Source: Dietzia psychralcaliphila (lineage in GTDB: Bacteria > Actinomycetota > Actinomycetes > Mycobacteriales > Mycobacteriaceae). From it: DNA of 64,000 nucleotides. The notes beneath the pieces were generated by a model, which was not told where the DNA came from, made no database searches, and saw nothing but the letters and a program-made list of their open reading frames with translations. The stretch is taken from the NCBI RefSeq assembly GCF_003096095.1, contig NZ_CP015453.1:3720001-3784000 (forward strand), read 5' to 3'. The position numbers were made by a program, and so were the translations under genes. Of the stretch, positions 32,941-48,172 are shown piece after piece. Each line of letters opens with the position of its first letter. The stretch's first letter is position 1.

Positions 32941-32989
32941 TCGGCTCAGCTCGGCTCGGCTCGGCTCGGCAACTCAGCTCAGCTCAGGA
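32941..32989. repeat. 5-bp tandem repeat (TCGGC/TCAGC) between convergent genes
   Basis: Six consecutive pentamers TCGGC or TCAGC (32941-32970), a short AAC break, then GCTCA-type units run into the 3' end of the minus-strand iron-enzyme gene, whose stop codon (32979-32981) is inside the array. Copy-number change would alter its C-terminus. Confidence 0.75.
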
Positions 32990-34058
32990 GCGAGGACTCC
33001 CCGCGGCCCCACGCGGCGAGCATCTCGCCCGCCGCCAGTTCGTCGAGGTAGTCCAGCGTGCGCATCCCGAAGACCACGTCGGCCGCCAGGTGCGGCTCCC
33101 GACTGACCAGATCCCCCACCACGTCGTGGCGCATCACCTGCTCGTGGACCGCGTCGGCCTCCACGTGCTCGGCGTAGAAGTGCACGCACTCCTCGGGGGC
33201 CCCCAACCGCCGCAGGCCCGCGACGAGCCGGGCCGATCCGGGGGACGAGGTGATCTCGATGGCGGCGAAGTGCCCGATCGCGGCGCCGCGGAGCGACCGG
33301 TGCAGCCCGAACAGCGACATCAGGTTGACCGTCGACAGCGTCGCCGCCGACACCCTGTCGAGGTATCCCAGGTAGGTGGGGTCCAGCCCGGCGGCCGCCA
33401 TGAGGTCGGCCCACAGGTGCTGGTGCACCCGCTCGCCGCGCCCGCCGCCGAACTCGTCGAACTCGACGGCGACGAACGAGGCCTTGGCCTGTCCCTGCAG
33501 GCGCGGGATCGTGAACGCGTGGGGGTCGCCCTCCTTGAGGTGGTACAGCGACCGGTGGGCGAAGTACTCGCGCAGCTGGTCCCAGGAGCCCTCGTCCTTG
33601 AAGTACCAGGACGGGCCGGTGCCGGAGGTCGTCTCCACGGACAGGGCGTCCATCTCCGCCACAGGGTCGTCTCCGGGCTCGACGGCACCCCGGAGGTGGT
33701 TCAGGAACGGTGTCTCCAGCGCCCGGCGCAGTCGTAGGAGCTCGGGGTCCCATTCCAGATCGGCGTCGACCCCGGCGAAGCCCCGGTAGTGGAGCTCGTA
33801 CAGCGTGTACAGCGCGAGCTGGAGATCGCGGCCCAGCGGATCGGTGTCCGCCGGCACATCGGTGAGCCCGTCGGTCCGACCCGTCGCCAACGCCGTGACG
33901 ACAGCCTCCGAGAGCTCCCCGCACCCGACCGGCAGCGCCGGTCCGGGATCGGACTGCGGGTGCACGGACTGCGCGTGCTCGGACCGTGTGTGCTCGGACC
34001 GCGCGGATCCGGAGGATGCCGTTGCGGTCGGGGCGGTTTCGGTCGGGGCGGCTGTCAT
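32979..34058 (-). CDS. iron-containing redox enzyme, haem-oxygenase-like fold
   Basis: 359 residues from ATG 34058 (GAAGGG upstream; the earlier in-frame start at 34115 has none). It belongs to the iron-containing redox enzyme family (haem-oxygenase-like diiron oxidase/oxygenase superfamily). Candidate metal ligands are Glu/His in LYTLYELHYRGF and Glu/His in HFYAEHVEADAVHEQVM; WYFKDEGSWDQLREYFAHRS is a family landmark. The first 40 residues are a low-complexity Thr/Ala/Ser/His stretch with SEHxxSEH repeats. Reaction unknown. It is convergent with the CDGSH gene, and the 3' end lies in a pentamer repeat. Confidence 0.75.
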   Translation of the reverse strand: MTAAPTETAPTATASSGSARSEHTRSEHAQSVHPQSDPGPALPVGCGELSEAVVTALATGRTDGLTDVPADTDPLGRDLQLALYTLYELHYRGFAGVDADLEWDPELLRLRRALETPFLNHLRGAVEPGDDPVAEMDALSVETTSGTGPSWYFKDEGSWDQLREYFAHRSLYHLKEGDPHAFTIPRLQGQAKASFVAVEFDEFGGGRGERVHQHLWADLMAAAGLDPTYLGYLDRVSAATLSTVNLMSLFGLHRSLRGAAIGHFAAIEITSSPGSARLVAGLRRLGAPEECVHFYAEHVEADAVHEQVMRHDVVGDLVSREPHLAADVVFGMRTLDYLDELAAGEMLAAWGRGESSLLS

Positions 34059-34168
34059 GCCCTTCTGTCTACCCTCGATCGCGGACGTCCTCCACCGGCT
34101 CGGCGGTCCACTCACCCCGCAGCTCAGTCACCCAGCGGTCCACTCACACCACGGCCCGGTCACCCCGG

Positions 34169-35359
34169 TCACCCGGCGGGTCGGTCCAACCGCGCGAAGG
34201 CGTCGAGGATCCGGGCGCCGTGGGGAAGAGCGGCCTCGTCCAGTACGAACCCGGGATGGTGCAGGTCGGTCTCCTCGGACTCGCCATCCCACACCCCCAA
34301 CCGCAGGTAGACGCCGGGGATCTCCTCGGTGTACCAGGCGAAGTCCTCTCCGCCGCTGGACTGCACGGCGGGTCCCACACCGTCCGGACCGAGGACCTGT
34401 TCGACGGCCGCCGCGGCCAGGTCCGCGCAGGTGTCGTCGTTGACCACCGGCGGCACCCCCTGGACGTAGTCCACCTCGGCGCGGACGCCGTAGGTCCGGG
34501 CGATCGCCTCGACGGCCTCGCGGACGACCGGTTCCGCGACAGCCCACACGTCCCGGTCGGCGCTGCGCAGTGTCCCCCACAGCTGACCCGAGTCGGGGAT
34601 GACGTTGGGTGCGGTCCCCCCTGCCTTGACCGACGCCCAGGTCAGGACCGTGCCCGACCGCGGGTCGATCGTCCGGTCCACCACGGCCGTCACGCCGGTG
34701 ACGATCTGCGCAAGGGCGAAGACCGTGTCCTGGGTCTCGTGCGGCCGGGCGGTGTGCCCGCCGTCCGAGTGGACCGTGATGCCGATCTTGGCGTTGGACG
34801 AGGTGATTGCGCCACCAGTGACGCCCACCTCGCCGACGCGGCGGTGGGGATCGCAGTGCAGGGCGATGATGCGGTCCACGCCCTCCACCACGCCCTCCTC
34901 GACGCAGTCCTTGGCGCCGCCCGGCATGGTCTCTTCCGCCGGTTGGAAGATCAGGCGCACAGGGCGCGGCGGCGGGTCGGCGACCAGCATCTCGGCCGCT
35001 CCCAGGAGCATCGCGGTGTGTCCGTCGTGACCGCACGTGTGCGCGACACCGTCGACCTCCGAGGCGAAGGGCTCTCCCGAGTCCTCACTCATCGCCAGCG
35101 CGTCGATGTCCGCCCGCAGGGCCACGACGTCCGTCGCGGTGGCGCCGTCGGCGGCCGGGACGTCGCACCACAGGCCGGTGCCGATCCGGAACCGCGTCGG
35201 TTCGAGCCCCATCGACCGGAGTTCGCCGTCGATGTAGTCGGTGGTCTCGGTCTCCTCGTAGGACAACTCGGGGTGAGTGTGGATATGGCGCCGCCACCCG
35301 ATCAGTCGTCCCTCGAACCCGTCCGAGTCGCCGGAATCACTCTTCTTGCGTCCGAACAC
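34169..35359 (-). CDS. M20-family amidohydrolase/peptidase
   Basis: 396 residues from GTG 35359, with AGGAGGTG five bases upstream. M20D metal ligands are visible: the Cys/His of HTCGHDGHTAML, Glu-Glu in IFQPAEETMPGG, His in ALHCDPH, and the final His in LHHPGF. A dimerisation domain lies between (GGHTARPHETQDTV). Such enzymes remove amide-linked acyl or amino-acid groups from small peptides or conjugates. Its first 23 bp overlap the S9 peptidase gene, so it is the last gene of the ATP-grasp operon. Confidence 0.88.
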   Translation of the reverse strand: MFGRKKSDSGDSDGFEGRLIGWRRHIHTHPELSYEETETTDYIDGELRSMGLEPTRFRIGTGLWCDVPAADGATATDVVALRADIDALAMSEDSGEPFASEVDGVAHTCGHDGHTAMLLGAAEMLVADPPPRPVRLIFQPAEETMPGGAKDCVEEGVVEGVDRIIALHCDPHRRVGEVGVTGGAITSSNAKIGITVHSDGGHTARPHETQDTVFALAQIVTGVTAVVDRTIDPRSGTVLTWASVKAGGTAPNVIPDSGQLWGTLRSADRDVWAVAEPVVREAVEAIARTYGVRAEVDYVQGVPPVVNDDTCADLAAAAVEQVLGPDGVGPAVQSSGGEDFAWYTEEIPGVYLRLGVWDGESEETDLHHPGFVLDEAALPHGARILDAFARLDRPAG

Positions 35360-37214
35360 CGAACACCTCCTGACAGAAGTCGACCACCCGGTCTCCGAGC
35401 AGCTGTCTGTTGGCCAATTTCACGAACTCGTGACCCTCGTCCTCGAAGAGCAACACGTCCACCGGTACGCCGCGGCGACGCAACGCCTCCACTGCCTGCT
35501 CCGTCTCGCTGAGCGGAACGTTGGTGTCGTGCGCTCCGTGGACGAAGAGCACGGGCACGTCCACGTGGTGGTACAGATGCAGCGGGGAGGCCTCCCTGAG
35601 CAGTTCACGCTCCTGCAGCGGGTTCCCGTACTTGGGATACGCGGCGGCGGCGATCCACGGTTCGGTGGTGCGGTAGAAACTCTGCAGGTCGCTCATCCCG
35701 CACGCCGCGATGCCACCTCGCCACCTCCCGGGATGCCGGACCAGGGTCGCGTTGACCAGGTAGCCGCCGTACGAGCGGCCCGAGACCACTGCCCTGTCGG
35801 GGTCGGCGATCCCCTCCTCGACCAGATGCAACAGCGCGTCCTCGACGTCGTCGATCCCCGCGAAGCGGCCGTAGCGGTCGTCGGCGTGGCTGTAGAAGCG
35901 CCCGGACCCCGTGGAGCCGCGCACATTGGGCGCGAAGTACGTCACGCCGATGTCGAGGTAGCGGCGGGCCAGGTCGTTGTACCCCGGCCGGGACTGCCCC
36001 TCGGGCCCGCCGTGGAGGTGCACGACCGTGGGCGTCGGCTCGTCGGCGGGGTCAGAACGGTACAACCAACCCGACAGTTCCAGACCGTCGCGGGCAGCGA
36101 ACCGCACCAGGACGGGAGCCGGATCCGGCTGCCTGGGGGGCTCCCCCGTCCACCTCCGTCTCTGGATGTCGTACATGACGATGCGCGGCGGCTGATCGAG
36201 ACTCTGCACGGTGAGTGCGAGCAACCGGCCGTCCGCCGTGAGCGTGGGTGCGGACGCGACCACCTCCGGCAGCGGGGGCCGGGCGATGGTCCGGGGTCGA
36301 CTCTTCCGCAGGTCCAGCACCTCGATCTCGGACAGTCCGCCCCGTACGTTCCACAGCAGGACCGCCGTCGAGCGGTCCAGGCTCACCTCCACCCGGTCCA
36401 GATCGGCGTCCTCCCTGTAGGCCACCTTCCAGGACTCGGTGCTCTCCTCGTCCGCCTCCACCGCGAGCAGACCCATGCGTTCCGCGGAGTGGTCGCTGCG
36501 CACGAGCATCTTCATGGGCCGGTTCTCACTCCCGGCGTCGAGGATCACGCCGGCATCCGTGGTGGAACCGGTATCGACGGGCAGGAGCGGCCACCATCGG
36601 CCGTCCGGGACGATGCGGAGCAGCTCGCGGTGCCCCCGCGCGCCGACACGGAACAGGGCGGCCCCGTCGCGGGCGTGGATGAGTGCGCCGCCCATCCGTC
36701 GGTCGACCACGGTGCTCGTCCCGGTTTCCGGGTCCACCACCCTGCCCTCGGCCAACCCCTCGGAGTCGAACGCGGTCAGTGCCAACAGGTCGCCGTCCCA
36801 GCAGACGATCTGCTCGGTGGCGTCGTGGCGGGTGTCGATCGGGTAGACGTCGCTGTCCTCGGGGTCGGTCGTGACCAGCCAGATCCGTTCGCGCTCCCCG
36901 CCGTCGGGCGCGACCTCGCAGGCCAGCCACCTGCCGTTGGGGGAGTACGCCACACGGCGGACCGGGCCGTTGACAGGTAGGACCACGTCCCGCTCCGGAC
37001 CGGCCCCGTTGAGGCCGCCGGGGCCGAGCGGCCGTTGCACCGCACGCGGATAGCCCGTGCGCTCGGTGACGACGCACGCCAGCATCGACCCGTCCGGGGA
37101 CAGGCACGGCGAGGTGGTGTGACGGATCTCGTCCGGCCCTCCGGCGGCGTCGTCGGGTGGTCCGGCGACGTCGAGGGACCCGACCTCCTCGGTGATCTCG
37201 GTCGTGTCATGCAC
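35337..37214 (-). CDS. S9 prolyl-oligopeptidase-family serine peptidase
   Basis: 625 residues from GTG 37214, overlapping the preceding ATP-grasp gene by 8 bp. The N-terminal two thirds is a beta-propeller (SPDGSMLACVV, SPNGRWLACEV, and related blades). The C-terminal alpha/beta hydrolase holds the nucleophile in SGRSYGGYLV (about residue 480), Asp in HGAHDTNVPL (about 561) and His in EDEGHEF (about 594). No signal peptide, so it is cytosolic. The propeller limits access to short peptides. It lies between two ligase genes and an M20 hydrolase, implying that the pathway makes and trims a peptide or amide. Confidence 0.9.
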   Translation of the reverse strand: MHDTTEITEEVGSLDVAGPPDDAAGGPDEIRHTTSPCLSPDGSMLACVVTERTGYPRAVQRPLGPGGLNGAGPERDVVLPVNGPVRRVAYSPNGRWLACEVAPDGGERERIWLVTTDPEDSDVYPIDTRHDATEQIVCWDGDLLALTAFDSEGLAEGRVVDPETGTSTVVDRRMGGALIHARDGAALFRVGARGHRELLRIVPDGRWWPLLPVDTGSTTDAGVILDAGSENRPMKMLVRSDHSAERMGLLAVEADEESTESWKVAYREDADLDRVEVSLDRSTAVLLWNVRGGLSEIEVLDLRKSRPRTIARPPLPEVVASAPTLTADGRLLALTVQSLDQPPRIVMYDIQRRRWTGEPPRQPDPAPVLVRFAARDGLELSGWLYRSDPADEPTPTVVHLHGGPEGQSRPGYNDLARRYLDIGVTYFAPNVRGSTGSGRFYSHADDRYGRFAGIDDVEDALLHLVEEGIADPDRAVVSGRSYGGYLVNATLVRHPGRWRGGIAACGMSDLQSFYRTTEPWIAAAAYPKYGNPLQERELLREASPLHLYHHVDVPVLFVHGAHDTNVPLSETEQAVEALRRRGVPVDVLLFEDEGHEFVKLANRQLLGDRVVDFCQEVFGVRTQEE

Positions 37215-39873
37215 GGTGGATCCAGGTGTCCTTTCCCCCGCCCCCGCTCGAGGCGTTGACGACCATCGTGCCCGCCGGGGCCACGCGTGTCAGTGCGACG
37301 GGCGGAGCCGAGGCGAGGATCTCACCCGAATCACCGGGACGGAGCATGACGAACGCCCGCATGTCGACGTGCCTGCGTTGGAGTTCGCGCCCGTCGAACG
37401 TCGGCAGGGTGGACAACGACTGGACCTCCTGGGCCACGAAGCGCTCTCCGTGCCGCCGCAGCTCGTCCCTCCGCTCGTCCAGCTCGCGGGGCGAGCACTC
37501 GGGGCCCACGGTGATCCCGGACCCCCCGTAGCCGTCGATCGGTTTGACCACCAGCTCACCCAGGCGGTCGAGGACCTGCCTCCGCTCCTCCGGATCCGAA
37601 CACAGGTAGGTGTCGACCTGCCCGATGAGTGGTTTCTTGCCCAGGTAGAAGTCGATGATCCGCGGCACCCGGGCGTAGATCGCCTTGTCGTCGGCGGCGC
37701 CGTTACCGGGCGCGTTGACCACGGCCACACCCCCCTCCGCCATCGCGCCGAGCAGTCCACGCCGCAGGACCGTGCCGTCCGCCCCCACGGAGGACAGCAG
37801 CATCTCCTCGTCCATACGGACGTAAAGCACATCCACCGGGGTGCGCTCCTCGCCGTCGACACGCCACAGTCGACTGTCCTCGATCGCCAGTTGGTCCGGG
37901 GTGACGAGCGGGCCGCCGATCGCCGCCGCGACCTGGCCCAGGTCGAAGGCCCCGAGTTCGTCCTCGGCGATCACCACCGCGATCGCCGGGTCGTCGACGC
38001 CCACCGGAGCGGCCGCACGGAGCGTCTGCGTCAGCATGTCCAGGCCGATCCGGGGATCGTGGATCTCGGAACGCGCGCCGAACTCGGGGAAGCCCTCGCT
38101 GATCCGGTCGCGGAGCGCGGCCGCTATCGCCAGGCCCCCCGCCATCCGGAGATTGTCCTCGAGCACGATCCACTCGCCCGGGGAGGTGGAGACCAGGTCG
38201 ACCCCGCACACCGGCGCGTGTAGTGCGCCCTCCGGGACCGACCGGCCGGTGGGACGGAAACCCGGCGCCCGTTCGAGCGCCTCGGCGGGGACGACGCCGG
38301 CGCGGATGATCTCACCCGGACCGTAGATGTCCCGGAGGAACAACTCCATCGCCCGTGCGCGCTGCTCGATACCCGCCGAGATCCGGGCCCACTGGTCGGC
38401 CGGGATGATCCGGGGGACCGCGTCCAGCGGGAACACCTGTGGCTCGTCCCTGCCGTACACCTTGAGGGTCACACCCAGGTCGCGCAGACGGTCGTCCACC
38501 TCCGCCTTGCGCTCACACAGGGCGTCGGGCCCCAGGTCGGAGACGGCCTTGAGGACGTCCACGTACTCCGGACGGGGCTCGCCGTCCTCGGTGATCGCCT
38601 CGTCATGCACCTCCTCGGTGACGGCCTCACCCAGTGGCGAGTAGGCGGCGAGCATCGACCGCATCCCGCGGTCGTCCGCCACCGCGCGGGGCCTGATCCT
38701 GTCGACGGTCTCCGCCAGCAGGACCGCGATCACGTCCCCACGCCTTCCGCGCCGACGGTGGGCGGCGCGCTGGCGGGCCGCCGAGGTTCCGGCCCCGCGG
38801 ATGCCGTCGAGGAGGTCGTTCACGAGCTCCAGCTCGCCGCCGGCGCGGAGCCGGTCGGCAAGACCCTCCACCAGGTCGGCGAGCAACTCGGGCGCGGGGC
38901 GCGGGCGCCCGGTGGACACGTCCACAAGGTCGCCCTCCATCCCGGAGCGGGCCGCCCGCCAGAACGCCGCGTCGAGGACGGCGGGCGAGGGGTCGTCCCA
39001 CCGTCGAGTGGGGTCGTCGCGTTGGGCGAGGATCCGGTCCACCGTGGCGCGGAAGAGGGCGGCGACGACGACGAGGGTGTCCACTGTGCTGCACGAGTCA
39101 CACGCCCGCAGTTCCACCCCGGCCCCGTCCCGGGTGGGGCGGATGTCGACGTCGATCGACTCCCGGCCCACCACCACCCCGGTGTCGAGTAGCTCGTCCT
39201 CCGCCGCCAGGACGCCGTCCGCGGTGTCGGTCGGGAAGGCGGTGAAGTGCGCGGGCGACCACCGCGTCTCGAACGTCCGCGTGGAGGCGTACCCGGAATC
39301 CCGGCCGTCGGCCCAGTAGGGCGAACTGGCGGCCATCGCCAGCAGGACGGGGACCACGGGGACCGCCCGGCGCGCGACGTACTGCGCCTCATCGGCGTCC
39401 GCGACCTCGACCACCACTCGGAACCGGGCCGCCGCACGGGTCTGGGATTCCCGACCCGGCGCGGGGTGGGGTTCCTCAGGGGTCGGGTCGAACTCGACTC
39501 CCGGGGAGGCCAGCGACCCGGCCGCGACCACGCCGGTGCGGATGCCACCCGCCGCCTCGGCCAACCGGGAGCGGCTCCGACGGACGGCCTCGCCTAGCTG
39601 GGCGAGGCCGGTGTGCGCGCCAACGTCGGACACCAGGAGCGCGCCGTGCCGGGCCGCGACCACGTGGCCGACAGCCGTCTCGCCAGCAGGGCCGCCAGCA
39701 GGGCCGAAAACCGTGTCGCCAGCAGGGCCGCCGGCGGTATCGCCGGCCGGGCCGCCGCCCTGCTCGTCGGCGGACGCGAGCACCTCGGGGGCACGTCGTA
39801 CCGGTCGTCTGGTCCGCAGGTCGACGAGGTGGAGTTCCTCCTCGATCCTGATCCATCGCTGTCCGTCGGTCAT
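37207..39873 (-). CDS. GCS2-like carboxylate-amine ligase fused to circularly permuted ATP-grasp (second copy)
   Basis: 888 residues from ATG 39873 (MTDGQRWIRIEEELHLVDL). Residues 1-400 resemble the YbdK/GCS2 glutamate-cysteine-ligase-like fold (EEELHLVDL, MAASSPYWADGRDSGYAS). Residues 430-888 are a circularly permuted type 2 ATP-grasp: VFPLDAVPRIIPADQW, GVDLVSTSPGEWIVLEDN, DDKAIYARVPRIIDFYLGKK (about 723), LVVKPIDGYGGSGITVGPE (about 776), and the terminal SSGGGGKDTWIHRA. Such fusions should activate carboxylates and form amide bonds; the product is unknown. Where family members have HxH in GTHVHV/GQHVHI this protein reads RFRVVVEV, so the first site may be altered. An N-terminal insert carries GGPAGDT-like repeats (DNA about 39675-39765). 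Confidence 0.85.
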   Translation of the reverse strand: MTDGQRWIRIEEELHLVDLRTRRPVRRAPEVLASADEQGGGPAGDTAGGPAGDTVFGPAGGPAGETAVGHVVAARHGALLVSDVGAHTGLAQLGEAVRRSRSRLAEAAGGIRTGVVAAGSLASPGVEFDPTPEEPHPAPGRESQTRAAARFRVVVEVADADEAQYVARRAVPVVPVLLAMAASSPYWADGRDSGYASTRTFETRWSPAHFTAFPTDTADGVLAAEDELLDTGVVVGRESIDVDIRPTRDGAGVELRACDSCSTVDTLVVVAALFRATVDRILAQRDDPTRRWDDPSPAVLDAAFWRAARSGMEGDLVDVSTGRPRPAPELLADLVEGLADRLRAGGELELVNDLLDGIRGAGTSAARQRAAHRRRGRRGDVIAVLLAETVDRIRPRAVADDRGMRSMLAAYSPLGEAVTEEVHDEAITEDGEPRPEYVDVLKAVSDLGPDALCERKAEVDDRLRDLGVTLKVYGRDEPQVFPLDAVPRIIPADQWARISAGIEQRARAMELFLRDIYGPGEIIRAGVVPAEALERAPGFRPTGRSVPEGALHAPVCGVDLVSTSPGEWIVLEDNLRMAGGLAIAAALRDRISEGFPEFGARSEIHDPRIGLDMLTQTLRAAAPVGVDDPAIAVVIAEDELGAFDLGQVAAAIGGPLVTPDQLAIEDSRLWRVDGEERTPVDVLYVRMDEEMLLSSVGADGTVLRRGLLGAMAEGGVAVVNAPGNGAADDKAIYARVPRIIDFYLGKKPLIGQVDTYLCSDPEERRQVLDRLGELVVKPIDGYGGSGITVGPECSPRELDERRDELRRHGERFVAQEVQSLSTLPTFDGRELQRRHVDMRAFVMLRPGDSGEILASAPPVALTRVAPAGTMVVNASSGGGGKDTWIHRA

Positions 39874-39930
39874 CGCGCCCACGCTAGGGGAACCCGGCAG
39901 GGTCCGCACCCGCGGCGGGGACGACTCGGG

Positions 39931-42516
39931 TCAGCGCATGATCCACGTGTCCTTACCGCCGCCCCCGCGGGAGGAGTTGACGATCAGCGACCCGGCGGGG
40001 GCCACCCTGGTGAGGCCGGCCGGCACCGCGTGCGCCGTGGTCCGACCCCCCTCGCGCCGCAGGTGTGCGAACGCGCGTAGGTCGACGTGCCGGCGCTGCA
40101 TGTGGGTGCCGTCGAAGGTCGGGAGCGTGGACAGCGCCACGACCTCCTGGGCGATGTAACCCTCGGGACGGGTGAGCAGCTCCTCCCGGCGTGCGGCCAG
40201 CTCGGCCTCGGAGCACTCGGGCCCGATGGTGATCCCCAGCCCGCCGTAGCCGTCGATCGGTTTGACCACCAGTTCCCCCAGCCTGTCCAGAACCAGGTCG
40301 CGCTGCGTCCGGTCCGCGCACAGGTACGTGGGCACCTGATCGAGGACCGGGGACTCCCCCAGGTAGAAGTCGATCATGGCGGGCACCGAGGCGTACACGG
40401 CCTTGTCGTCGGCCACCCCGTTTCCGAGGGCGTTGGCCACCGTCAGGCGTCCTCCGGCCAGGGCGTCGAGCAACCCGTCGCGCAGCGGAACACCGTCCAG
40501 TCCGGGCGAGCTGAGCAGCATGTCCTCGTCGATCCGCGCGTACACCACGTCCACCCTGAGCAATCCGTCACCGGTTCTCCGGTGCAGGATCCCGTCCCGG
40601 AAGACCACCTCGTCGGGAGTGACGAGCGGCAGGCCGGTCCGGTCGGCGATGAGTCGGTGTTCGAACCACGCCGAGTCCGCCGATCCGGAGGACATCACCA
40701 CCACGTTCGGGGTGTCCCCCGCCGCCGGTGGCGCCGCCGCCTCCAGGGTCTCTCGGATCATGGGGAAAGCCTGATCGGGCGAGTGGAGATCGAACTCGTC
40801 CACCAGGTCGCCGAACAGCGACGCCGTCATCTCGCGGTGGGCGGTGGAGAAGGCGATCCCCGACGGCACCCGGACGTTGTCCTCGAGCACCAACCACCGA
40901 CCGTCGTCGGCGCACACCAGATCGATACCGCAGATGTGGGCCCGGATCCGGTCGGCCCCCAGTACCCGCCCGGTGCTCCTGCGGAACCCCGGCGCGCGGT
41001 CGAGCGCCTCGGGGGTGAGGTGCCCGGCGGCGAGGAACTCCTGATCGCCGTAGACGTCGTCCAGGAACGCGTCGAGGGCGCGGGCGCGCTGTTCGATACC
41101 GGCGGCGAGCCTCTCCCAGACCTCCGACGTGATGATGCGTGGGACGAAGTCCATCGGGAACGCGTGGGGCCGTTCCTGGCCCGTGACGCGGAACGTGACC
41201 CCGGCGACCGAGGCCTCCTGCTCCGCTCTCACCTGCCGTGCCCGGAGCCTGACGGTGCCGATCTGCTGCAGGGCCGTCAGGACCGGGTCGTACGGCGCCC
41301 GCGGCCGACCGCCGGCCTCCACCGCCTCGTCCCAGCTCGGGTCCGTGTCCAGGCCCTCGATCGGTAGGTACACACCGAACAGTCGCGAGTGCGCGTCCGG
41401 CACGGGCGACCGGGGGCCGCTGGTGCCACTCGTCTCCACCACCAGCAGGTCCACGATGTCCTGGACGTGGCCCCGGCGTCGCAGCGTCTGCCGCTGACGG
41501 AACGCGCTGCTGCCGTTGTACAACGCGTCATCGACCAGCTCCCGCACGGTGTCCAGGTCCCCCGTGCCGGACAACTGCTCGGCCAGGGAATCGACGAGGT
41601 CCGTGATCACGTCGGCCGCGGGACGGGGCTCAAGGGTCACCGGGTCCACCAGCGCGCCCTCGAGACCGGATCGGGCGGCGCGCCACAACGCGGCCCGGAG
41701 CCTCGTCTCCACCGGCGCGGCGGGCTCCGCACCTCGTGCCAGTGCCGCGGCCTCCCGCTCCACCAGAGCGCGGAACAGGGTCGCCACCAGTGCCGTGGCG
41801 TCGGCGGACGGGCACGCGTCACACACCAGGATCTCCACCGATCGCCCGTCCGCGCCGGGTTGGATCCCGAAGCCCACCATCGAGGGGTCGGAGATCACGC
41901 CGCTGCTCACGAGGTCGTCGACGAGCGCGTGGTAGTCCTCCGCCGAACACACCCCCGCCACCGGCGCGGTGGTGGGCCACTGGGACGCGGCGACCGAACG
42001 GCAGCTGGCGTACCCGGAGTCCGATCCGTCGCGGAGGAACGGCGAGCTCGCGGTGAGCGCCAGGAAGACCGGCAGGTGCGGAGCGATACGACACGCCAGG
42101 GCGACGGCCTCGTCGGTGTCCACGGCATCCACACGGATGCGGGTGCCGCAGTAGATCTGGCCCCGGGCCAGGAACTCGTAGTCGGCCAGGAGTCGGCGCA
42201 TCCGCGGGCTCTCGTCGACCAGCGCCGACCCCGGGGGCACGAGCGGGACCGCACCCGCGGCCGCCACGGTGAGGCCGCGGTCCTCACCCACCCGGCGCAG
42301 GCTCTCGCGCACATCACGGAGCGCCGAGCGCAAACCGGATGCTGTGTGAGCCGGACTGGTTCGCGCCCGGATCACACAGTTGCGTACCTCCTCGGCGACG
42401 ACGTCCCCGGATCGGTGGGCCAGCAGCTCCGACGCCCGGGGCGTCAGTTCCCGACTCTCGGTGTCGAGGACCTGCAGGTCCTCCTCGATCACCGCGGACC
42501 TGAAATCGGCTTCCAT
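39931..42516 (-). CDS. GCS2-like carboxylate-amine ligase fused to circularly permuted ATP-grasp (first copy)
   Basis: 861 residues from ATG 42516 (MEADFRSAVIEEDLQVLD). The start is supported by TACATT 6 nt upstream (leaderless). Same two-part build as its downstream paralogue: a GCS2-like half with YCGTRIRVDAVDTDEA and LTASSPFLRDGSDSGYAS, then an ATP-grasp half with FPMDFVPRIITSEVWERL, GIDLVCADDGRWLVLEDN, DDKAVYASVPAMIDFYLGES, LVVKPIDGYGGLGITIGPE (about 749) and SSRGGGGKDTWIMR. The GTHVHV motif of the family reads GTRIRV here, so both histidines are arginines. It heads an operon of two ligases and two hydrolases. Tandem duplication followed by divergence is evident. Confidence 0.85.
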   Translation of the reverse strand: MEADFRSAVIEEDLQVLDTESRELTPRASELLAHRSGDVVAEEVRNCVIRARTSPAHTASGLRSALRDVRESLRRVGEDRGLTVAAAGAVPLVPPGSALVDESPRMRRLLADYEFLARGQIYCGTRIRVDAVDTDEAVALACRIAPHLPVFLALTASSPFLRDGSDSGYASCRSVAASQWPTTAPVAGVCSAEDYHALVDDLVSSGVISDPSMVGFGIQPGADGRSVEILVCDACPSADATALVATLFRALVEREAAALARGAEPAAPVETRLRAALWRAARSGLEGALVDPVTLEPRPAADVITDLVDSLAEQLSGTGDLDTVRELVDDALYNGSSAFRQRQTLRRRGHVQDIVDLLVVETSGTSGPRSPVPDAHSRLFGVYLPIEGLDTDPSWDEAVEAGGRPRAPYDPVLTALQQIGTVRLRARQVRAEQEASVAGVTFRVTGQERPHAFPMDFVPRIITSEVWERLAAGIEQRARALDAFLDDVYGDQEFLAAGHLTPEALDRAPGFRRSTGRVLGADRIRAHICGIDLVCADDGRWLVLEDNVRVPSGIAFSTAHREMTASLFGDLVDEFDLHSPDQAFPMIRETLEAAAPPAAGDTPNVVVMSSGSADSAWFEHRLIADRTGLPLVTPDEVVFRDGILHRRTGDGLLRVDVVYARIDEDMLLSSPGLDGVPLRDGLLDALAGGRLTVANALGNGVADDKAVYASVPAMIDFYLGESPVLDQVPTYLCADRTQRDLVLDRLGELVVKPIDGYGGLGITIGPECSEAELAARREELLTRPEGYIAQEVVALSTLPTFDGTHMQRRHVDLRAFAHLRREGGRTTAHAVPAGLTRVAPAGSLIVNSSRGGGGKDTWIMR

Positions 42517-42592: not shown

Positions 42593-43393
42593 TCAGCGGG
42601 CCCGCCAGACGGGCTCGCGCTTCTCCGCGAACGCCCGCGGGCCCTCCGCGGCATCCTCCGATGTCATGACGGTGATCATCTCCGTGTCGCTGACCTTCCA
42701 GCGGTCGTCCTCCGCCGCGCGGGCGCCGTCGCTGATCCCCAGCGCGACGCGTTTGCTGGCCTGCACGGCCACCGGCGCGTTGGCGGCGATCACACCGGCC
42801 AGCTCGAGCGCCGAATCGAGCAGGTCCGCGGCCGGGACGACCCGGTTGATCAGGTGCAGGTCCAGAGCGCGCTCGGCCGTGACCGGTTGGCCGGTGAGGA
42901 TCATCTCCATGGCCACCCGGTGAGGGACCTGGGCCGGCAGTCGGAACGCACCGCCCGCGGCCGCGATGAGGCCACGCCTGACCTCGGGCAGCCCGAAGAC
43001 CGCGTGGTCGGCGGCCACCACGAGGTCGCACGCGAGCGCGATCTCGCAGCCCCCGCCCAGCGCGGTGCCGTTGACCGCGGCGATCACCGGCACCGAGACG
43101 TAGTGCTGCATCATGCCGGCGAAACCCCACTGGCGGTTCTCCGCGGGGAAGATGTCCTCGCCCCTGGAGATCGCCTTGAGGTCCGCACCCGCGCAGAACG
43201 ACTGCTCACCGGACCCGGTGAGCACCACCACCCGGATCTCCGGGTCCGTATCCGCCTCGTGCAGTGCCCTGCCCAGCAGGGTGCTCACCTCGCCGTTGAC
43301 GGCGTTGCGGGCCTCGGGGCGGTCGATGGTGACGAGCAGGACGTGCTCGCGGCGCTCGGTGCGGACGGCGGGTCGGGTCTCGGAGGAGGTCAT
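42593..43393 (-). CDS. enoyl-CoA hydratase/isomerase (crotonase) family protein
   Basis: 266 residues. The oxyanion-hole segments are FCAGADLKAIS (about 66-76) and NGTALGGGCEIALACDLVVA (about 104-123); the catalytic acid segment FGLPEVRRGLIAAAGG (about 129-144) keeps a Glu. It acts on an acyl-CoA thioester, most simply hydrating a 2-enoyl-CoA. It is monocistronic or weakly linked to the ATP-grasp genes downstream. It is a separate paralogue from the crotonase at 58368, and the substrate is unknown. Confidence 0.85.
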   Translation of the reverse strand: MTSSETRPAVRTERREHVLLVTIDRPEARNAVNGEVSTLLGRALHEADTDPEIRVVVLTGSGEQSFCAGADLKAISRGEDIFPAENRQWGFAGMMQHYVSVPVIAAVNGTALGGGCEIALACDLVVAADHAVFGLPEVRRGLIAAAGGAFRLPAQVPHRVAMEMILTGQPVTAERALDLHLINRVVPAADLLDSALELAGVIAANAPVAVQASKRVALGISDGARAAEDDRWKVSDTEMITVMTSEDAAEGPRAFAEKREPVWRAR

Positions 43394-43492: not shown

Positions 43493-44923
43493 TCAGTGAA
43501 TCGGGCACCCGACCGGTGTCGACGGGGTGGCGTCGTGGTGGTCGTAGGGAGTGGTCAGGATTCCCTTGCGTCTGGCGGCAGCGCGGGAGGTCAGTACGTT
43601 GACGCGCCAGAATCGGTCACCCCTGCGGGCACGCCGACGGAGGCGGGTGTCCTCGAATGGCAGGGTGTCGGCAACTCTGTTCATCCAGACGTTGACCCTC
43701 GCGACCACGCCGATCAGCCGAACCCACCGAGTGAGCGAGATGTCGTGCACCGGCGTGGTTGCGATGAGAGCACGTACCGCGGGCTCACCGCCGAAGTAGG
43801 CCATCATGCCCAACAAGGGGCCCGCCATCACGCGCCCCTTCACGGTCAGCCGACCGCCCTCGTCGGACAGGTGGGTTGCAGCGGCCCCGGACATCTCTGC
43901 AGTGGCGTCGGTCGGGCCGCCGGTATAGGGCAGGTAGTGGTTGAGTACCTCGACGGCGTCGATCGCGGTGGCCGGAATGACATCCTCGCTGACGCCGAAG
44001 ACAAAGGCGATGTGCGCCCAGTAGATCCACGCGTCGTCGAGATCCGATTGCGAGTACACACGGCCGTGTGCCTGATCGACGAGCATCGGCAGAAGGCCGA
44101 ACGAGATCGCGCCCATCAGCATCGCGGTGCACGAGATCGGGCAGCCGTCGCGATCGACACTCTCCGGGTCCCACGATCGTCGGAGTCCTGCGCGGACCTG
44201 TGAATGCATCAGGCGGACTTTCACGGTGTCCTTGAAAACCGGCGAGTACCGGTCCATGGCGCTTGTGCGGGTGACGTTCCAGAACCAGGTGTAAGTCTCG
44301 AACATCCGCCTCTGGTAGTCGTTGATGAACCTGCGCGTCGTGCCCGTGGCAGTCGAGACGTCGTTGCCGACGAAGGTCGCCAGCGCGTCCATCACCGCCA
44401 TGCCCGTCTTGCCGGCGAACGACGCACTAATCCACAGTTGGCGCCCACTCTCCCACCGCTCCGGATCGTGCCAGGCTGGTGGGTTGTCCAGGCTGGCGAA
44501 GAATCTCAGGAGTTCCGGCGGCGGATCGACTACCGCGTCGATTCCGTCGTCCAGGGCCCGTTCGAGCATCCGCCGGCCTTCGGACAGGCCGATCCGACGA
44601 AATGCCTGCACCACCTCGTCCATCAGTTCGTCGCCCTGCCATTGATGATCGGCCACCAGGTCGATCAACGGTGACGGCGACGCGAGCCGGTCTCGCGGGA
44701 CCATCGGCTCGACGAAGCGGCTGCGCGATGCGTCCCACAACTCATGGCTCTGGGTCGATCGCTCCGGCCACGGCCTCAGTGGCATGCCGGATCGGTAGTA
44801 GTAGTAGTAGTCGAACGGATGAGGCGAGCCGACGGGGTCCTGAATCGGTGTCGGTGTGGTCGTGGAAATGGCGTCGTCCCCCTCGTTCGTCCCTTGTCCG
44901 GCCGCGAGTGTGACCGAGATCAT
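43493..44923 (-). CDS. MpaB/DUF2236-family oxygenase-like protein
   Basis: 476 residues of the DUF2236 (oxygenase MpaB / latex-clearing-protein-related) family: FVEPMVPRDR, RRMFETYTWFWNVTRTS, VKVRLMHSQVRAGLRRSWDP, CPISCTAMLMGAISFGLLPM, YWAHIAFVFGVSEDVIPAT. These proteins are predicted haem-binding oxygenases; no substrate is established here. The N-terminal 40 residues are polar and end in a Tyr run. It is divergent from a TetR gene with a shared 77-bp promoter region. Confidence 0.75.
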   Translation of the reverse strand: MISVTLAAGQGTNEGDDAISTTTPTPIQDPVGSPHPFDYYYYYRSGMPLRPWPERSTQSHELWDASRSRFVEPMVPRDRLASPSPLIDLVADHQWQGDELMDEVVQAFRRIGLSEGRRMLERALDDGIDAVVDPPPELLRFFASLDNPPAWHDPERWESGRQLWISASFAGKTGMAVMDALATFVGNDVSTATGTTRRFINDYQRRMFETYTWFWNVTRTSAMDRYSPVFKDTVKVRLMHSQVRAGLRRSWDPESVDRDGCPISCTAMLMGAISFGLLPMLVDQAHGRVYSQSDLDDAWIYWAHIAFVFGVSEDVIPATAIDAVEVLNHYLPYTGGPTDATAEMSGAAATHLSDEGGRLTVKGRVMAGPLLGMMAYFGGEPAVRALIATTPVHDISLTRWVRLIGVVARVNVWMNRVADTLPFEDTRLRRRARRGDRFWRVNVLTSRAAARRKGILTTPYDHHDATPSTPVGCPIH

Positions 44924-45906: not shown

Positions 45907-46674
45907 ATGACCGCGACACGACTCGCGCAGCGCCCCCAACTCTCCGAGGAGGTCGCGGACCATGTCCGGACGCGGATCATGAGCGGGGAGGTACGCCCCG
46001 GGGACTTCATCCGGCTGGACGAGACCGCCGCCGCGCTCGGCGTGAGCGTGACCCCGGTCCGGGAGGCGCTTCTCACGCTCCGCGGCGAGGGGCTGGTGGA
46101 CCTCGTCCCCCGGCGCGGGTATCTGGTCTCACCGATGAGCCGCCAGGATGTCGAGGACATCTTCTGGCTACAGGCGGAGCTGTCCAGGCGGATCGTCGAC
46201 CGTGCCATCACGCGATTCGACGCCGCCGCGTTGGAGACCCACGCCCAGCTGGTGGACGACTTCGAGGCGGCCAGCGCGGCCGGGGACTCGGACGGGGTGG
46301 TGCACGCCCAGTACAGCATCCACCGGTCCATCAACCGCGCGTCACAGTCGGACAAGCTGTCGAGGTTCCTGTTCACCGCCGCCCGATACATGCCGTATCG
46401 GCTCTACGCCGACGATCCCGCCTGGCGCGCCGCCGCACTCGTGGACAACCGACGCATGCTCGAGGCCCTGCGGGAGGGTGACGTGGCGACCGCCCACGCG
46501 GTGGTGGACGCCGAGTACAGCAACGGAGCGCGCCTGCTCGTGGCCCACCTCGAACGCGCCGGGGTGTGGGACGACGCCCGCGACGACAGCTCCCCCGACG
46601 CGGTCGAGGTCACATCAGCGGACGACCGCTCCGCAGGCGCCACCTCAGATCGAGCAGCAGCACCCGGTAGGTGA
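45907..46674 (+). CDS. GntR/FadR-type regulator with FCD domain
   Basis: 255 residues from ATG 45907, with GAGGTGG six bases upstream. Winged helix: LSEEVADHVRTRIMSGEVRPG, ALGVSVTPVREALLTLRGEG, GYLVSPMSRQDVEDIF. The FCD ligand-binding domain follows (Asp/His residues in DDFEAASAAGD, AQYSIHRSINRAS and HAVVDAEYSNG). Its last 65 bp overlap the convergent MpaB gene at the end of the mce operon. A FadR-type GntR (Mce1R) controls the mce1 operon in M. tuberculosis, so this is a good candidate regulator of the adjacent mce locus. Confidence 0.85.
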   Translation: MTATRLAQRPQLSEEVADHVRTRIMSGEVRPGDFIRLDETAAALGVSVTPVREALLTLRGEGLVDLVPRRGYLVSPMSRQDVEDIFWLQAELSRRIVDRAITRFDAAALETHAQLVDDFEAASAAGDSDGVVHAQYSIHRSINRASQSDKLSRFLFTAARYMPYRLYADDPAWRAAALVDNRRMLEALREGDVATAHAVVDAEYSNGARLLVAHLERAGVWDDARDDSSPDAVEVTSADDRSAGATSDRAAAPGR

Positions 46675-47464
46675 GCGTGCGCACCGGCCACGGCAACAGC
46701 CGGTTGGCCGCCGCCGTCACCTCGAGGAACCGCTCGAAACGGCGCTGGTCCCGTGGGTTCCACGGCAGCCCGAGCGCGTCACGGAACTCGCGGTGCAGGA
46801 ATCCCGTCGTCACCCACTTGTTCAACTTTCCGAACAACACGGTGGTGGGCTGCGGCAGCATCCGCAGCTCGGCCAGTCCCACCAGGTGCTCCCGGACCGA
46901 CTCGTCGAAACGGATGCGGGACATCCCCTCTCGCCAGTAGTCGTCGAACTCCGCCCGCGTGGCCGGCCACTGGTCGGGTCGCACCTGGAGCGTGGTGCCC
47001 AGCGACGGAGCGGAGAGGTAGAACGCCTCGCGGTCGGAGTCGGTCATCGGACCGTGCAGCCACTCGAAGGCGTCCTCGAACCCGACGTACAGGCACGCCG
47101 CCACCCACATCTGCAGTCCCGGGTCGAGGGCGCTGTACTTGACCGGGCTCTCCGGGGTGGAGTGCACGCGCCGATGGATTCGGGTGACCTCGTCGCGGTA
47201 GACGCGCTTGTCGTCGTCGCTCCCCAGGGTCGCCACCGCCAGGTACTGGAAGGTCGTGCGCGCCCGCTTGAGCGGGCGCTTGTAGACGTTCCCGGTGTCC
47301 ACGCGGCTCTCACGCACACCCCAGCCGACCTCCGGCCAGGACAGCTGCATGATGACGTTGGCCACGCCGCCGGCGGCGCCGATGGAGTCGACGGCGTCGG
47401 TGACCCCCGGAGGGACCGCCCGGGCGACCGGCAATGCGGGATTGCGGTGGAGTTCGGTGATCAC
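46610..47464 (-). CDS. MpaB/DUF2236-family oxygenase-like protein at the end of the mce operon
   Basis: 284 residues from GTG 47464, chosen because AAGGAG is eight bases upstream; the upstream in-frame TTG has no ribosome site. Family segments include YLAVATLGSDDDKRVYRDEV, THRRVHST-type HRRVHSTPESPVKYSALDP, LQMWVAACLYVGFEDAFEWL and FGKLNKWVTTGFLHREFRDA. The H-R-x-V-H pair is conserved in MpaB-like oxygenases. It lies 90 bp after the Mce-associated gene and probably acts on the imported lipid. Confidence 0.75.
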   Translation of the reverse strand: MITELHRNPALPVARAVPPGVTDAVDSIGAAGGVANVIMQLSWPEVGWGVRESRVDTGNVYKRPLKRARTTFQYLAVATLGSDDDKRVYRDEVTRIHRRVHSTPESPVKYSALDPGLQMWVAACLYVGFEDAFEWLHGPMTDSDREAFYLSAPSLGTTLQVRPDQWPATRAEFDDYWREGMSRIRFDESVREHLVGLAELRMLPQPTTVLFGKLNKWVTTGFLHREFRDALGLPWNPRDQRRFERFLEVTAAANRLLPWPVRTLTYRVLLLDLRWRLRSGRPLM

Positions 47465-47554
47465 GGGTGGTTCTCCTTCTTGTCGTTCAACCTTGTCGTT
47501 CAACCTGGATGTGCTGACGGTTCCGATCGGGTGTTCCTGGCTGCCGGCCGGTGC

Positions 47555-48172
47555 TCAGGCGAGCTCGGCGGCGTCGAGCAGCCATCTGTCGCCGTCGCGG
47601 ACGAGCGTCACCACCATCCGGCTCGCGTCGACCCGGCCGTCGGGGACGGTGACGTTGGTGACCTCCTGGTCCAGGAACACCAGGACCACGGCGCGCTCGA
47701 TGTCGACGCTCTGCACTCCCGCGTGGGTGACGGTCCCGGCCGAGGTGCCCTGTCCGCTGGTGAGCAACTCGCGCAGTCCCTCGGACACCTCGCGATAGCG
47801 GTCGGCGAATTCCGGGGTGGCCTCGGCCACGACCGCCTCGATGTTGGCGTCCACGTCCGTGTGGTCGTAGGACGCGAGCTGCACGACCAGGCGGGTGGCG
47901 TCCTCGGTCGCGGTGCGTCGCAGCTCGTCCTCCCGGTGGTCCGACCACACGAGGTAGCCCAGCCAGGCGCACGCGGCGACCAGTGCCACCACGACCAGGG
48001 CGCCCACGATGCGAGCGGCGCTCCTCCGCCGGAGGGTCGTGCCGACCACCGGGCGGTCTTCTCCCGGGTCGCCCTTCGGAGGTCGGCCTCCCTGGGCATC
48101 GTCTTCCGGGGAGTCGTGTTCCCGGGCGTCTTGTTCCGGGGAGTCGTCTTCCGGGGGGGCCTCAGCCGCCAT
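47555..48172 (-). CDS. Mce-associated membrane protein (Mas)
   Basis: 205 residues: an acidic Pro/Asp/Glu-rich N-terminus with short repeats (EDDSPEQD, EHDSPEDD), one TM helix (ARIVGALVVVALVAACAWLG, about 53-72), and an external SnoaL/NTF2-like domain ending in VVTLVRDGDRWLLDAAEL, as in proteins encoded behind mce genes in mycobacteria. It is thought to stabilise or couple the Mce complex. It overlaps mceF by 11 bp. Confidence 0.8.
   Translation of the reverse strand: MAAEAPPEDDSPEQDAREHDSPEDDAQGGRPPKGDPGEDRPVVGTTLRRRSAARIVGALVVVALVAACAWLGYLVWSDHREDELRRTATEDATRLVVQLASYDHTDVDANIEAVVAEATPEFADRYREVSEGLRELLTSGQGTSAGTVTHAGVQSVDIERAVVLVFLDQEVTNVTVPDGRVDASRMVVTLVRDGDRWLLDAAELA

What the first reader, a model, noticed from the sequence alone, without database searches (positions are those of the whole stretch)
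34169..42516. Twin GCS2-ATP-grasp fusions with S9 and M20 peptidases: a possible new peptide or amide pathway
Two adjacent paralogues each combine a glutamate-cysteine-ligase-like domain with a circularly permuted ATP-grasp, four potential amide-forming sites in all. They overlap or closely adjoin a prolyl-oligopeptidase-type and an M20 hydrolase on one strand. Synthesis plus trimming enzymes without any ribosomal-precursor or NRPS gene suggests a small peptide, a gamma-linked tag or a storage amide of unknown nature.
Basis: partly seen in the sequence, partly recalled or inferred. Interest (0 to 1): 0.76.

Follow-up and report, generated by a model that had tools for sequence, protein, structure and literature searches.

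The report
Ligase pair from amide-osmolyte gene cluster
Two neighbouring bacterial ligases, each with one worn-out half, appear to descend from a widespread but uncharacterised gene cluster that probably makes a glutamine-based salt-protection molecule with an unexpected enzyme, so the find points to a second route to a known osmolyte.

Summary
The anatomy is real: G1 (39931-42516) and G2 (37207-39873) are GCS2 + circularly permuted ATP-grasp fusions, followed by S9 and M20 hydrolases on the minus strand. "Four amide-forming sites" is not supported: both GCS2 domains have lost conserved catalytic residues, while both ATP-grasp domains keep the nucleotide/metal residues. Best reading: two one-site ligases.

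Outside this genus the fusion is single with intact GCS2. In 75 of 80 named loci the next gene is an N-acetylglutaminylglutamine (NAGGN) amidotransferase (AsnO); S9 is within four genes in 68. In 394 class genomes, 106 AsnO genes adjoin Ngg (49), the fusion (35), GCS2 alone (14) or neither (8); no case of both was found. Ten of ten Micromonospora loci have fusion-AsnO and 0 of 10 genomes have Ngg, yet a Micromonospora makes NAGGN by NMR (PMC8146288, passages). So GCS2(-ATP-grasp) probably replaces Ngg. The window's operon lost AsnO and GCS2 chemistry but keeps ATP-grasp, S9 and M20; its own product is unknown. New variant of a known kind.

The parts
39931..42516 (-). G1: GCS2-like pseudo-domain + intact circularly permuted ATP-grasp type 2 (861 aa from ATG at 42516; the frame is open to an ATG at 42654)
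   Evidence: Pfam. Keeps 97.7% of 87 family-conserved ATP-grasp columns but 70.9% of 86 GCS2 columns; E13D, E51R, N53R, Q127R, H129R, R135T, R180Q, D218G, R220Q, R231L in the numbering of the L034 fusion
37207..39873 (-). G2: diverged paralogue; GCS2 remnant + ATP-grasp (frame open to GTG 39909)
   Evidence: Pfam. Keeps 83.9% of the conserved ATP-grasp and 58.1% of the GCS2 columns, with gaps and changes across P92-G125 and loss of the QxH motif; H620 of the SAWFEH motif is L
35337..37214 (-). S9 (prolyl-oligopeptidase-type) hydrolase
   Evidence: PF00326; Ser and Asp motifs in 20 of 20 homologues checked, a strictly written His motif in 17 of 20, window included
34169..35359 (-). M20 amidohydrolase/aminoacylase-like
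   Evidence: TIGR01891 over cut-off; PAEE, GxEDF and HHPxF in 15 of 15 homologues, HxCGHDGH in 12 of 15, HCxP in 14 of 15; the window has all five
42593..43393 (-). Enoyl-CoA hydratase/crotonase gene directly upstream; same strand, perhaps same transcript, link to the pathway unproven
   Evidence: PF00378; adjacent in 13 of 14 same-genus loci, contig end in the 14th; not labelled in any of the 80 neighbour windows (three genes before, five after) printed
32979..34115 (-). Haem-oxygenase-like (PF14518) gene downstream; peripheral
   Evidence: present in 4 of 14 same-genus loci, 0 of 80 outside loci

Best explanation
The locus is a remodelled descendant of an actinobacterial cluster [GCS2-CP-ATP-grasp fusion]-[AsnO amidotransferase]-[S9]-(M20). 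In the parent cluster the fusion takes the place of Ngg, the known N-acetylglutaminylglutamine synthetase, and supplies the (acyl-)Gln-Gln-type peptide that AsnO amidates; the most likely product is NAGGN or a close analogue, a compatible solute. In the window's genus the fusion duplicated, AsnO was lost and both GCS2 halves lost catalysis. G1 and G2 are therefore probably single-site ligases: the ATP-grasp half activates a carboxylate with ATP as an acyl phosphate and joins it to an amine. The GCS2 remnant, where kept, is scaffold or substrate clamp. S9 and M20 probably trim, deacylate or recycle the product. Shown here by computation: homology, gene order, residue loss and retention, replacement pattern. 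Inferred: every substrate, the product, the roles of S9 and M20, and any role in salt stress.
For: Fusion directly followed by AsnO in 75 of 80 outside loci and S9 within four genes in 68 of 80; the five such AsnO proteins scanned score 931-963 bits against TIGR03104 (cut-off 570.1). Three Rhodococcus loci and one Antrihabitans locus read fusion-AsnO-S9-M20 (4 of 80), i.e. the window's order plus AsnO. AsnO partners in a sample of 394 class genomes: Ngg 49, fusion 35, GCS2 alone 14, neither 8, both 0 found. Ngg over cut-off in 7 of 75 named fusion-bearing genomes and 0 of 10 Micromonospora, while NAGGN was isolated from M. provocatoris (PMC8146288, passages). The 23 genus genomes, own included: no TIGR03104 or TIGR03103 over cut-off. 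GCS2 columns kept: G1 69-72%, G2 50-60% (0 in two that lost the domain), against 92-99% in nine fusions not next to AsnO; ATP-grasp columns 97.7%, 84-86% and 91-100%. GCS2 diverges faster relative to ATP-grasp in G1 (median ratio 1.68) and G2 (1.54) than in other fusions (1.07). G1 groups with a Janibacter fusion (SH-aLRT 97) and more loosely with Rhodococcus and Aldersonia ones (83); a tree holding G1+G2 together is 12 log-units better than the free quick search (p-AU 0.736).
Against: No metabolite is known to me from this genus. The M. provocatoris genome was not searched, and its authors state that asnO and ngg are predicted there. No acetyltransferase was recognised beside the fusion, so the source of NAGGN's acetyl group is unexplained. 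GCS2-AsnO clusters without the ATP-grasp exist (14 of 106 AsnO genes), as does one AsnO-S9-ATP-grasp locus without GCS2 beside it (L062), so the division of labour is unclear. AsnO loss alone does not predict GCS2 decay: nine fusions not next to AsnO and five more among the 80 keep GCS2. In the genus G1 is absent in six loci and broken in two, so part of the locus may simply be decaying. In the free tree G2 does not sit beside G1.
Confidence: 0.55

Rival explanations
1. The parent cluster makes a different amide, such as a gamma-glutamyl dipeptide amide (gamma-Glu-Gln-NH2 type), not NAGGN: GCS2 forms a gamma-glutamyl bond, the ATP-grasp extends it, AsnO amidates the end.
For: The superfamily of GCS2 activates usually the gamma-carboxylate of glutamate (PMC2588565, passages). 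No GNAT domain matched in the window's fusions. GCS2 alone sits with AsnO in 14 of 106 cases.
Against: AsnO of the fusion clusters scores as the NAGGN equivalog (931-963 bits in the five scanned) and L034's is 61-62% identical to AsnO of four Ngg clusters. NAGGN itself was isolated from a Micromonospora, a genus with fusion-AsnO and no Ngg in 10 of 10 tested.
Confidence: 0.25
2. The window's locus is a decaying relic with no present function.
For: GCS2 degenerate in both copies and AsnO gone. Of the 20 same-genus genomes with a hit, G1 is intact in 6, absent between hydratase and G2 in 6, broken in 2, cut by contig ends in 2, and not found in 4 whose contigs end in or near G2. Two near-identical genomes lost the GCS2 part of G2 (L043, L051).
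Against: The listed ATP-grasp nucleotide/metal residues are kept in the five G2 copies printed, 84-86% of conserved ATP-grasp columns are kept in 15 of 15 G2, and G2-S9-M20 stand together in 14 of 14 loci.
Confidence: 0.15
3. One reading: a full four-site synthesis pathway with trimming peptidases.
For: Both Pfam domains over cut-off in both proteins.
Against: QxH motif, E51 and R180 lost in G1 and G2; R220 and R231 also lost in G1; the GCS2 domain is missing from G2 in L043 and L051.
Confidence: 0.04
4. A peptide- or protein-tagging system of the pupylation kind.
For: GCS2 and PafA share a fold (PMC2588565, passages); ligase plus peptidase layout.
Against: No gap in the operon over 76 bp, so no small ORF between the genes; the partner gene elsewhere is a small-molecule amidotransferase.
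Confidence: 0.03

Closest known systems
NAGGN pathway (AsnO TIGR03104 - Ngg TIGR03103 - M42 peptidase; Sinorhizobium, Pseudomonas)
   Same: In relatives of the window's fusion the same AsnO equivalog is usually the next gene and a peptidase follows; two-domain synthetase plus amidotransferase logic.
   Different: Synthetase is GCS2 + circularly permuted ATP-grasp instead of GNAT + RimK-like ATP-grasp; S9 (sometimes M20) instead of M42. The window itself has neither AsnO nor Ngg.
YbdK / GCS2 carboxylate-amine ligases (PDB 1r8g, 1tt4)
   Same: Homology over most of the domain.
   Different: Strand-4 [HDQ]x[NH] motif lost in G1 and G2; parent fusions keep it.
Circularly permuted ATP-grasp type 2 proteins (PDB 3n6x); elsewhere often paired with alpha-E and transglutaminase genes (pairing recalled; an ATP-grasp/alpha-E neighbour is annotated)
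   Same: ATP-grasp half aligns with residues 26-473 of the 474 of 3n6x (321 bits).
   Different: No alpha-E or transglutaminase match in this operon; fused to GCS2 instead.
Amidoligase survey of Iyer et al. 2009 (PMC3268129; recalled, not held)
   Same: Recalled to describe ATP-grasp and GCS2 systems with peptidases.
   Different: Could not be read, so whether it lists the GCS2-ATP-grasp-AsnO-S9 set is unknown.

Membership tests
NAGGN biosynthesis (window locus) | AsnO-type amidotransferase over TIGR03104 cut-off in the genome | tested here: not met
   Best in own genome 272.1 bits against a cut-off of 570.1; 0 of 23 genus genomes over cut-off (three of the 23 are 64-83% complete or so, so absence there is weak)
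NAGGN biosynthesis (window locus) | Ngg (TIGR03103) present | tested here: not met
   Best listed match in own genome is a 26-bit fragment; 0 of 23 genus genomes over cut-off
NAGGN-type cluster (parent loci outside the genus) | AsnO next to the synthetase | tested here: met
   75 of 80 loci; 931-963 bits for the five scanned
NAGGN-type cluster (parent loci outside the genus) | Ngg as synthetase | tested here: not met
   0 of 106 AsnO genes found next to both Ngg and fusion/GCS2 (the Ngg-linked ones were searched for GCS2 only at E <= 1e-150); Ngg anywhere in 7 of 75 fusion genomes
NAGGN-type cluster (parent loci outside the genus) | Makes NAGGN | not testable with these tools
   Inference from M. 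provocatoris NMR (PMC8146288, passages) and 10 of 10 other Micromonospora loci; that genome was not searched
Active GCS2 ligase (G1, G2) | Pfam domain over cut-off | tested here: met
   104.8 and 64.4 bits against 21
Active GCS2 ligase (G1, G2) | Strand-4 [HDQ]x[NH] motif and acidic residue E51 | tested here: not met
   R-x-R and R in G1; R-x-V and V in G2 of the window; motif described in PMC2588565 (passages); that E51 is the strand-2/3 acid is my reading of the alignment
Active GCS2 ligase (G1, G2) | Strand-6 Ex[RK]x2D | tested here: inconclusive
   EILVCD in G1 (R lost); ELRACD in G2 of the window (kept)
CP ATP-grasp type 2 | Domain over cut-off and conserved E-D-N, K, D-x-R residues | tested here: met
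   390.8 and 320.5 bits; E545, D546, N547, K705, K752, D812, R814, N848, K856 kept in the three G1 and five G2 rows printed. Their catalytic roles are recalled from the ATP-grasp fold, not tested
Alpha-E / CP-ATP-grasp / transglutaminase system | Alpha-E and transglutaminase partners in the operon | tested here: not met
   None matched among the eight operon and flanking proteins scanned
Pupylation | Small Pup-like ORF beside the ligase | tested here: inconclusive
   No intergenic gap over 76 bp inside the operon; only gaps were checked, no Pup profile was run

The most novel reading that the evidence does not exclude
Actinobacteria have a second NAGGN (or NAGGN-like) synthetase unrelated to Ngg: a GCS2 domain, often fused to a circularly permuted ATP-grasp, that feeds the same AsnO amidotransferase. 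The window's genus has stripped this down to paired one-site ATP-grasp ligases carrying a GCS2 pseudo-domain, which with S9 and M20 make and recycle a different, unamidated peptide or N-acyl amino acid.
Probability: 0.4. Interest if true: 0.7.

Novelty: new variant of a known kind. Interest (0 to 1): 0.55.

Why it matters
NAGGN clusters are reported as conserved in Micromonospora, found mainly among core genes (PMC12915310, passages), and a possible ancient horizontal transfer shared with Pseudomonas and Sinorhizobium has been raised to explain them (PMC11537254, passages). The ten Micromonospora genomes tested here lack Ngg and carry GCS2-ATP-grasp instead, so the synthesis step there is probably done by an unstudied enzyme. 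If right, it gives a function to proteins now annotated only as 'glutamate--cysteine ligase' or 'circularly permuted type 2 ATP-grasp protein', and lets the source of a compatible solute in soil and marine actinobacteria be tested with one deletion. The window adds a natural dissection: GCS2 degenerate with ATP-grasp kept here, ATP-grasp altered with GCS2 kept in Rhodococcus coprophilus, and GCS2 with AsnO but no fused ATP-grasp in Streptomyces fungicidicus.

Tried and rejected
Chance or ORF artefact: rejected by Pfam/NCBIfam matches and recurrence. Haem-oxygenase-like gene as a core part: rejected (4 of 14 genus loci; 0 of 80 outside loci). Ordinary alpha-E/CP-ATP-grasp system: rejected, no alpha-E or transglutaminase match. 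An acetyltransferase beside the fusion that could explain NAGGN's acetyl group: none recognised by eye among the ORFs printed for two position ranges of eight loci; most of those ORFs were not profile-scanned, so this is weak.

Literature: Iyer 2009 and Sagot 2010 are not held. Listings of the searches for a link between GCS2/ATP-grasp and NAGGN showed me no paper stating it; I saw capped listings and abstract starts only, and the library is open-access only, so this is weak. Tblastn against plasmids gave 0 records with one place covering 80% of the fusion.

The first AsnO tree had two rows (L180, L190) in a wrong reading frame, seen as very long branches; redone, where L183 did not pass the start filter, was kept as first translated and has a long branch. 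An early assumption that group g73 was Micromonospora was wrong: its fusions match Frankia best, so searches are not used for the Micromonospora count. The genus name of the window (probably Dietzia) is recalled from genome size and G+C and comes from no call.
Full report
Observation. The window lies at positions 3720001-3784000 of contig 1 of a 3.9-Mb genome in two contigs, about 70-74% G+C around the locus. On the minus strand are G1 (39931-42516, 861 aa), G2 (37207-39873, 888 aa), S9 (35337-37214) and M20 (34169-35359). Pfam and NCBIfam confirm GCS2 + CP_ATPgrasp_2 in both ligases, Peptidase_S9, and an M20 amidohydrolase. An enoyl-CoA hydratase gene lies directly upstream and a haem-oxygenase-like gene downstream. 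Gaps from the hydratase gene to M20 are at most 76 bp, so no precursor-peptide gene fits between the genes.

In the genus. A search with G1 over 61 genomes hit 55, including 20 of the 23 genomes of the window's genus, own genome included. From I read G2 in all 20. G1 is intact in 6 (G000, G002, G004, G010, G021, G022), broken in 2 (G014, G017), present only as pieces at contig ends in 2 (G019, G020), absent between the hydratase gene and G2 in 6 (G007, G008, G009, G012, G015, G016), and not found in 4 whose contigs end in or near G2 (G003, G006, G013, G018). G2, S9 and M20 stand together in 14 of 14 genus loci fetched; the hydratase gene precedes them in 13, and in the 14th (L052) the contig ends inside G2. 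Two near-identical genomes (L043, L051) keep only the ATP-grasp part of G2.

Outside the genus. The same fusion occurs singly. In six loci (L033-L038) it is followed by a gene of about 595 aa; the five of these scanned match TIGR03104, N-acetylglutaminylglutamine amidotransferase, at 931-963 bits against a cut-off of 570.1 (the sixth, in L035, was not scanned there but is over cut-off at 957 bits). My own simple gene caller plus BLAST labels gave: AsnO as next gene in 75 of 80, S9 within four genes in 68 of 80, M20 within four genes in 4 of 80, the haem-oxygenase-like gene in 0 of 80. A tblastn check over the whole loci gave AsnO in 75 and S9 in 71 of 80; of the five without AsnO, L085 is only a 5.4-kb contig.

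Replacement of Ngg. Among 61 relatives, 12 have TIGR03104 over cut-off: 4 have Ngg over cut-off next to it (G038, G050, G051, G057), 6 have the fusion (G023, G027, G031, G037, G047, G060), G030 has GCS2 alone followed by AsnO-S9-M20, and G054 has AsnO-S9-ATP-grasp without GCS2 beside it. Among 394 class genomes, a sample drawn by the tool, 105 have TIGR03104 over cut-off, 106 genes in all. Partner on the same strand within 6 kb: Ngg 49; fusion 35 (31 in one piece, 3 in two matched pieces, 1 at a contig edge); GCS2 alone 14 (5, plus 9 found at E <= 1e-30 and read by eye); neither 8; both 0. Limits: the class searches scored only the two or three best candidates per genome; the genomes with Ngg were searched for the fusion/GCS2 only at E <= 1e-150; G230, counted as neither, has a weak GCS2 (270 bits) 5.8 kb away. 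In 8 of the 10 f33 genomes re-searched no CP-ATP-grasp hit reached 1e-30, so GCS2 looks like the constant partner and the ATP-grasp an addition. Fusions not next to AsnO occur outside the genus too (10 whole ones; L148-L151 are fusion-S9). A named GCS2-AsnO-hydrolase example is on plasmid p1 of Streptomyces fungicidicus. In a tree of 63 AsnO proteins the 19 Ngg-linked ones are one side of a branch, support only 68, while the fusion-linked and GCS2-linked ones need four label changes each.

Chemistry from the literature. In the known pathway Ngg acetylates one glutamine and joins a second, and AsnO amidates the product (PMC8070244, passages). NAGGN was isolated and identified by NMR and MS from Micromonospora provocatoris, whose authors state that asnO and ngg are predicted in its genome (PMC8146288, passages). 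NAGGN-type clusters are reported as conserved in Micromonospora (PMC11537254, PMC12915310, passages). Here 10 of 10 Micromonospora loci have fusion-AsnO and 0 of 10 genomes have a TIGR03103 match at E <= 1e-40 (L105, L107, L108, L109, L116; L119, L121, L123, L133, L137). Over all named fusion genomes searched, Ngg is over cut-off in 1 of 26 and 6 of 49, i.e. 7 of 75; by their labels six are Mycobacterium or Mycolicibacterium and one is an unplaced actinobacterial MAG (L092). Five of the 80 loci were not tested (L142 not held; L081, L083, L085, L094 not asked). The M. provocatoris genome itself was not searched.

Active sites. In 86 parent fusions (three of them duplicates) 86 GCS2 and 87 ATP-grasp columns are at least 97% conserved. 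Kept: G1 (6 sequences) 69-72% and 97.7%; G2 (15, one cut by a contig end) 50-60%, or 0 in the two without the domain, and 84-86%; nine fusions not next to AsnO 92-99% and 91-100%; nine stand-alone GCS2 71-100% (the two at 71%, L161 and L166, are not next to AsnO). The five fusions without AsnO among the 80 also keep 97-100% of GCS2 columns. Published superfamily motifs are GhExE on strand 1, acidic residues on strands 2 and 3, [HD]x[NH] ([HQ]x[NH] in PafA) on strand 4 and Ex[RK]x2D on strand 6 (PMC2588565, passages). Parent fusions have GVEEE, E51, QVH and ELRxxD; G1 has EED, R, RIR and EILVCD in the window; G2 has EEE, V or A, no QxH, and ELRACD in the window. The ATP-grasp residues E545, D546, N547, R549, K705, K752, D812, R814, N848, K856 and D857 are kept in the three G1 and five G2 sequences printed; G2 loses H620. 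GCS2-to-ATP-grasp divergence ratio: parent fusions median 1.07 (244 pairs, 2.5-97.5% range 0.35-1.55), G1 1.68 (14 pairs), G2 1.54 (59 pairs); pairs are not independent and the ranges overlap.

Ancestry. On the ATP-grasp part, G1 groups with a Janibacter fusion (97) and more loosely (83) with Rhodococcus and Aldersonia fusions, while G2 has a long stem and in the free tree lies elsewhere. Holding G1 and G2 together raises the likelihood by 12 units over the free quick search (p-AU 0.736), so duplication in this lineage is the simplest reading but is not proven.

Conclusion. The window carries a derived form of a GCS2/ATP-grasp-AsnO-S9(-M20) cluster. The parent cluster most likely makes NAGGN or a close amide through a synthetase unrelated to Ngg. 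In this genus GCS2 catalysis and AsnO are gone, leaving one or two ATP-grasp ligases with S9 and M20.

Noticed in passing
window 46610-55880 (-): Mce-type operon by the four proteins scanned there (MlaE permease, two MlaD/Mce4_CUP1 proteins, and an MpaB-like oxygenase gene at one end); acyl-CoA ligase and 3-hydroxyacyl-CoA dehydrogenase genes follow.
   Followed up: no
window 20854-24810 (+): 1318-aa STAND NTPase with WD40 repeats and a weak HTH match.
   Followed up: no
window 43493-44923 (-): MpaB/Lcp-like oxygenase (34 bits) just upstream of the hydratase gene.
   Followed up: no
L097 9989-12577: Rhodococcus coprophilus fusion: GCS2 columns fully kept but ATP-grasp key residues changed (N547H, K705R, K752R, N848D) and no AsnO found in the locus; mirror image of the window's case.
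   Followed up: partly
L068: Contig labelled Kitasatospora arboriphila carries a fusion 97% identical to the Williamsia muralis one; possible mislabelled or contaminated assembly.
   Followed up: no
L087: A MAG labelled Nevskia sp. carries an actinobacterial-type fusion-AsnO-S9 locus resembling the Mycobacterium MAG locus L088; possible binning error.
   Followed up: no
L148-L151: Fusion-S9 pairs without AsnO but with 92-98% of conserved GCS2 columns, a recurrent AsnO-less form outside the window's genus.
   Followed up: partly
L173 2854-6782: In Streptomyces fungicidicus an OsmC-family gene lies divergent to GCS2-AsnO-hydrolase, hinting at a stress role.
   Followed up: no
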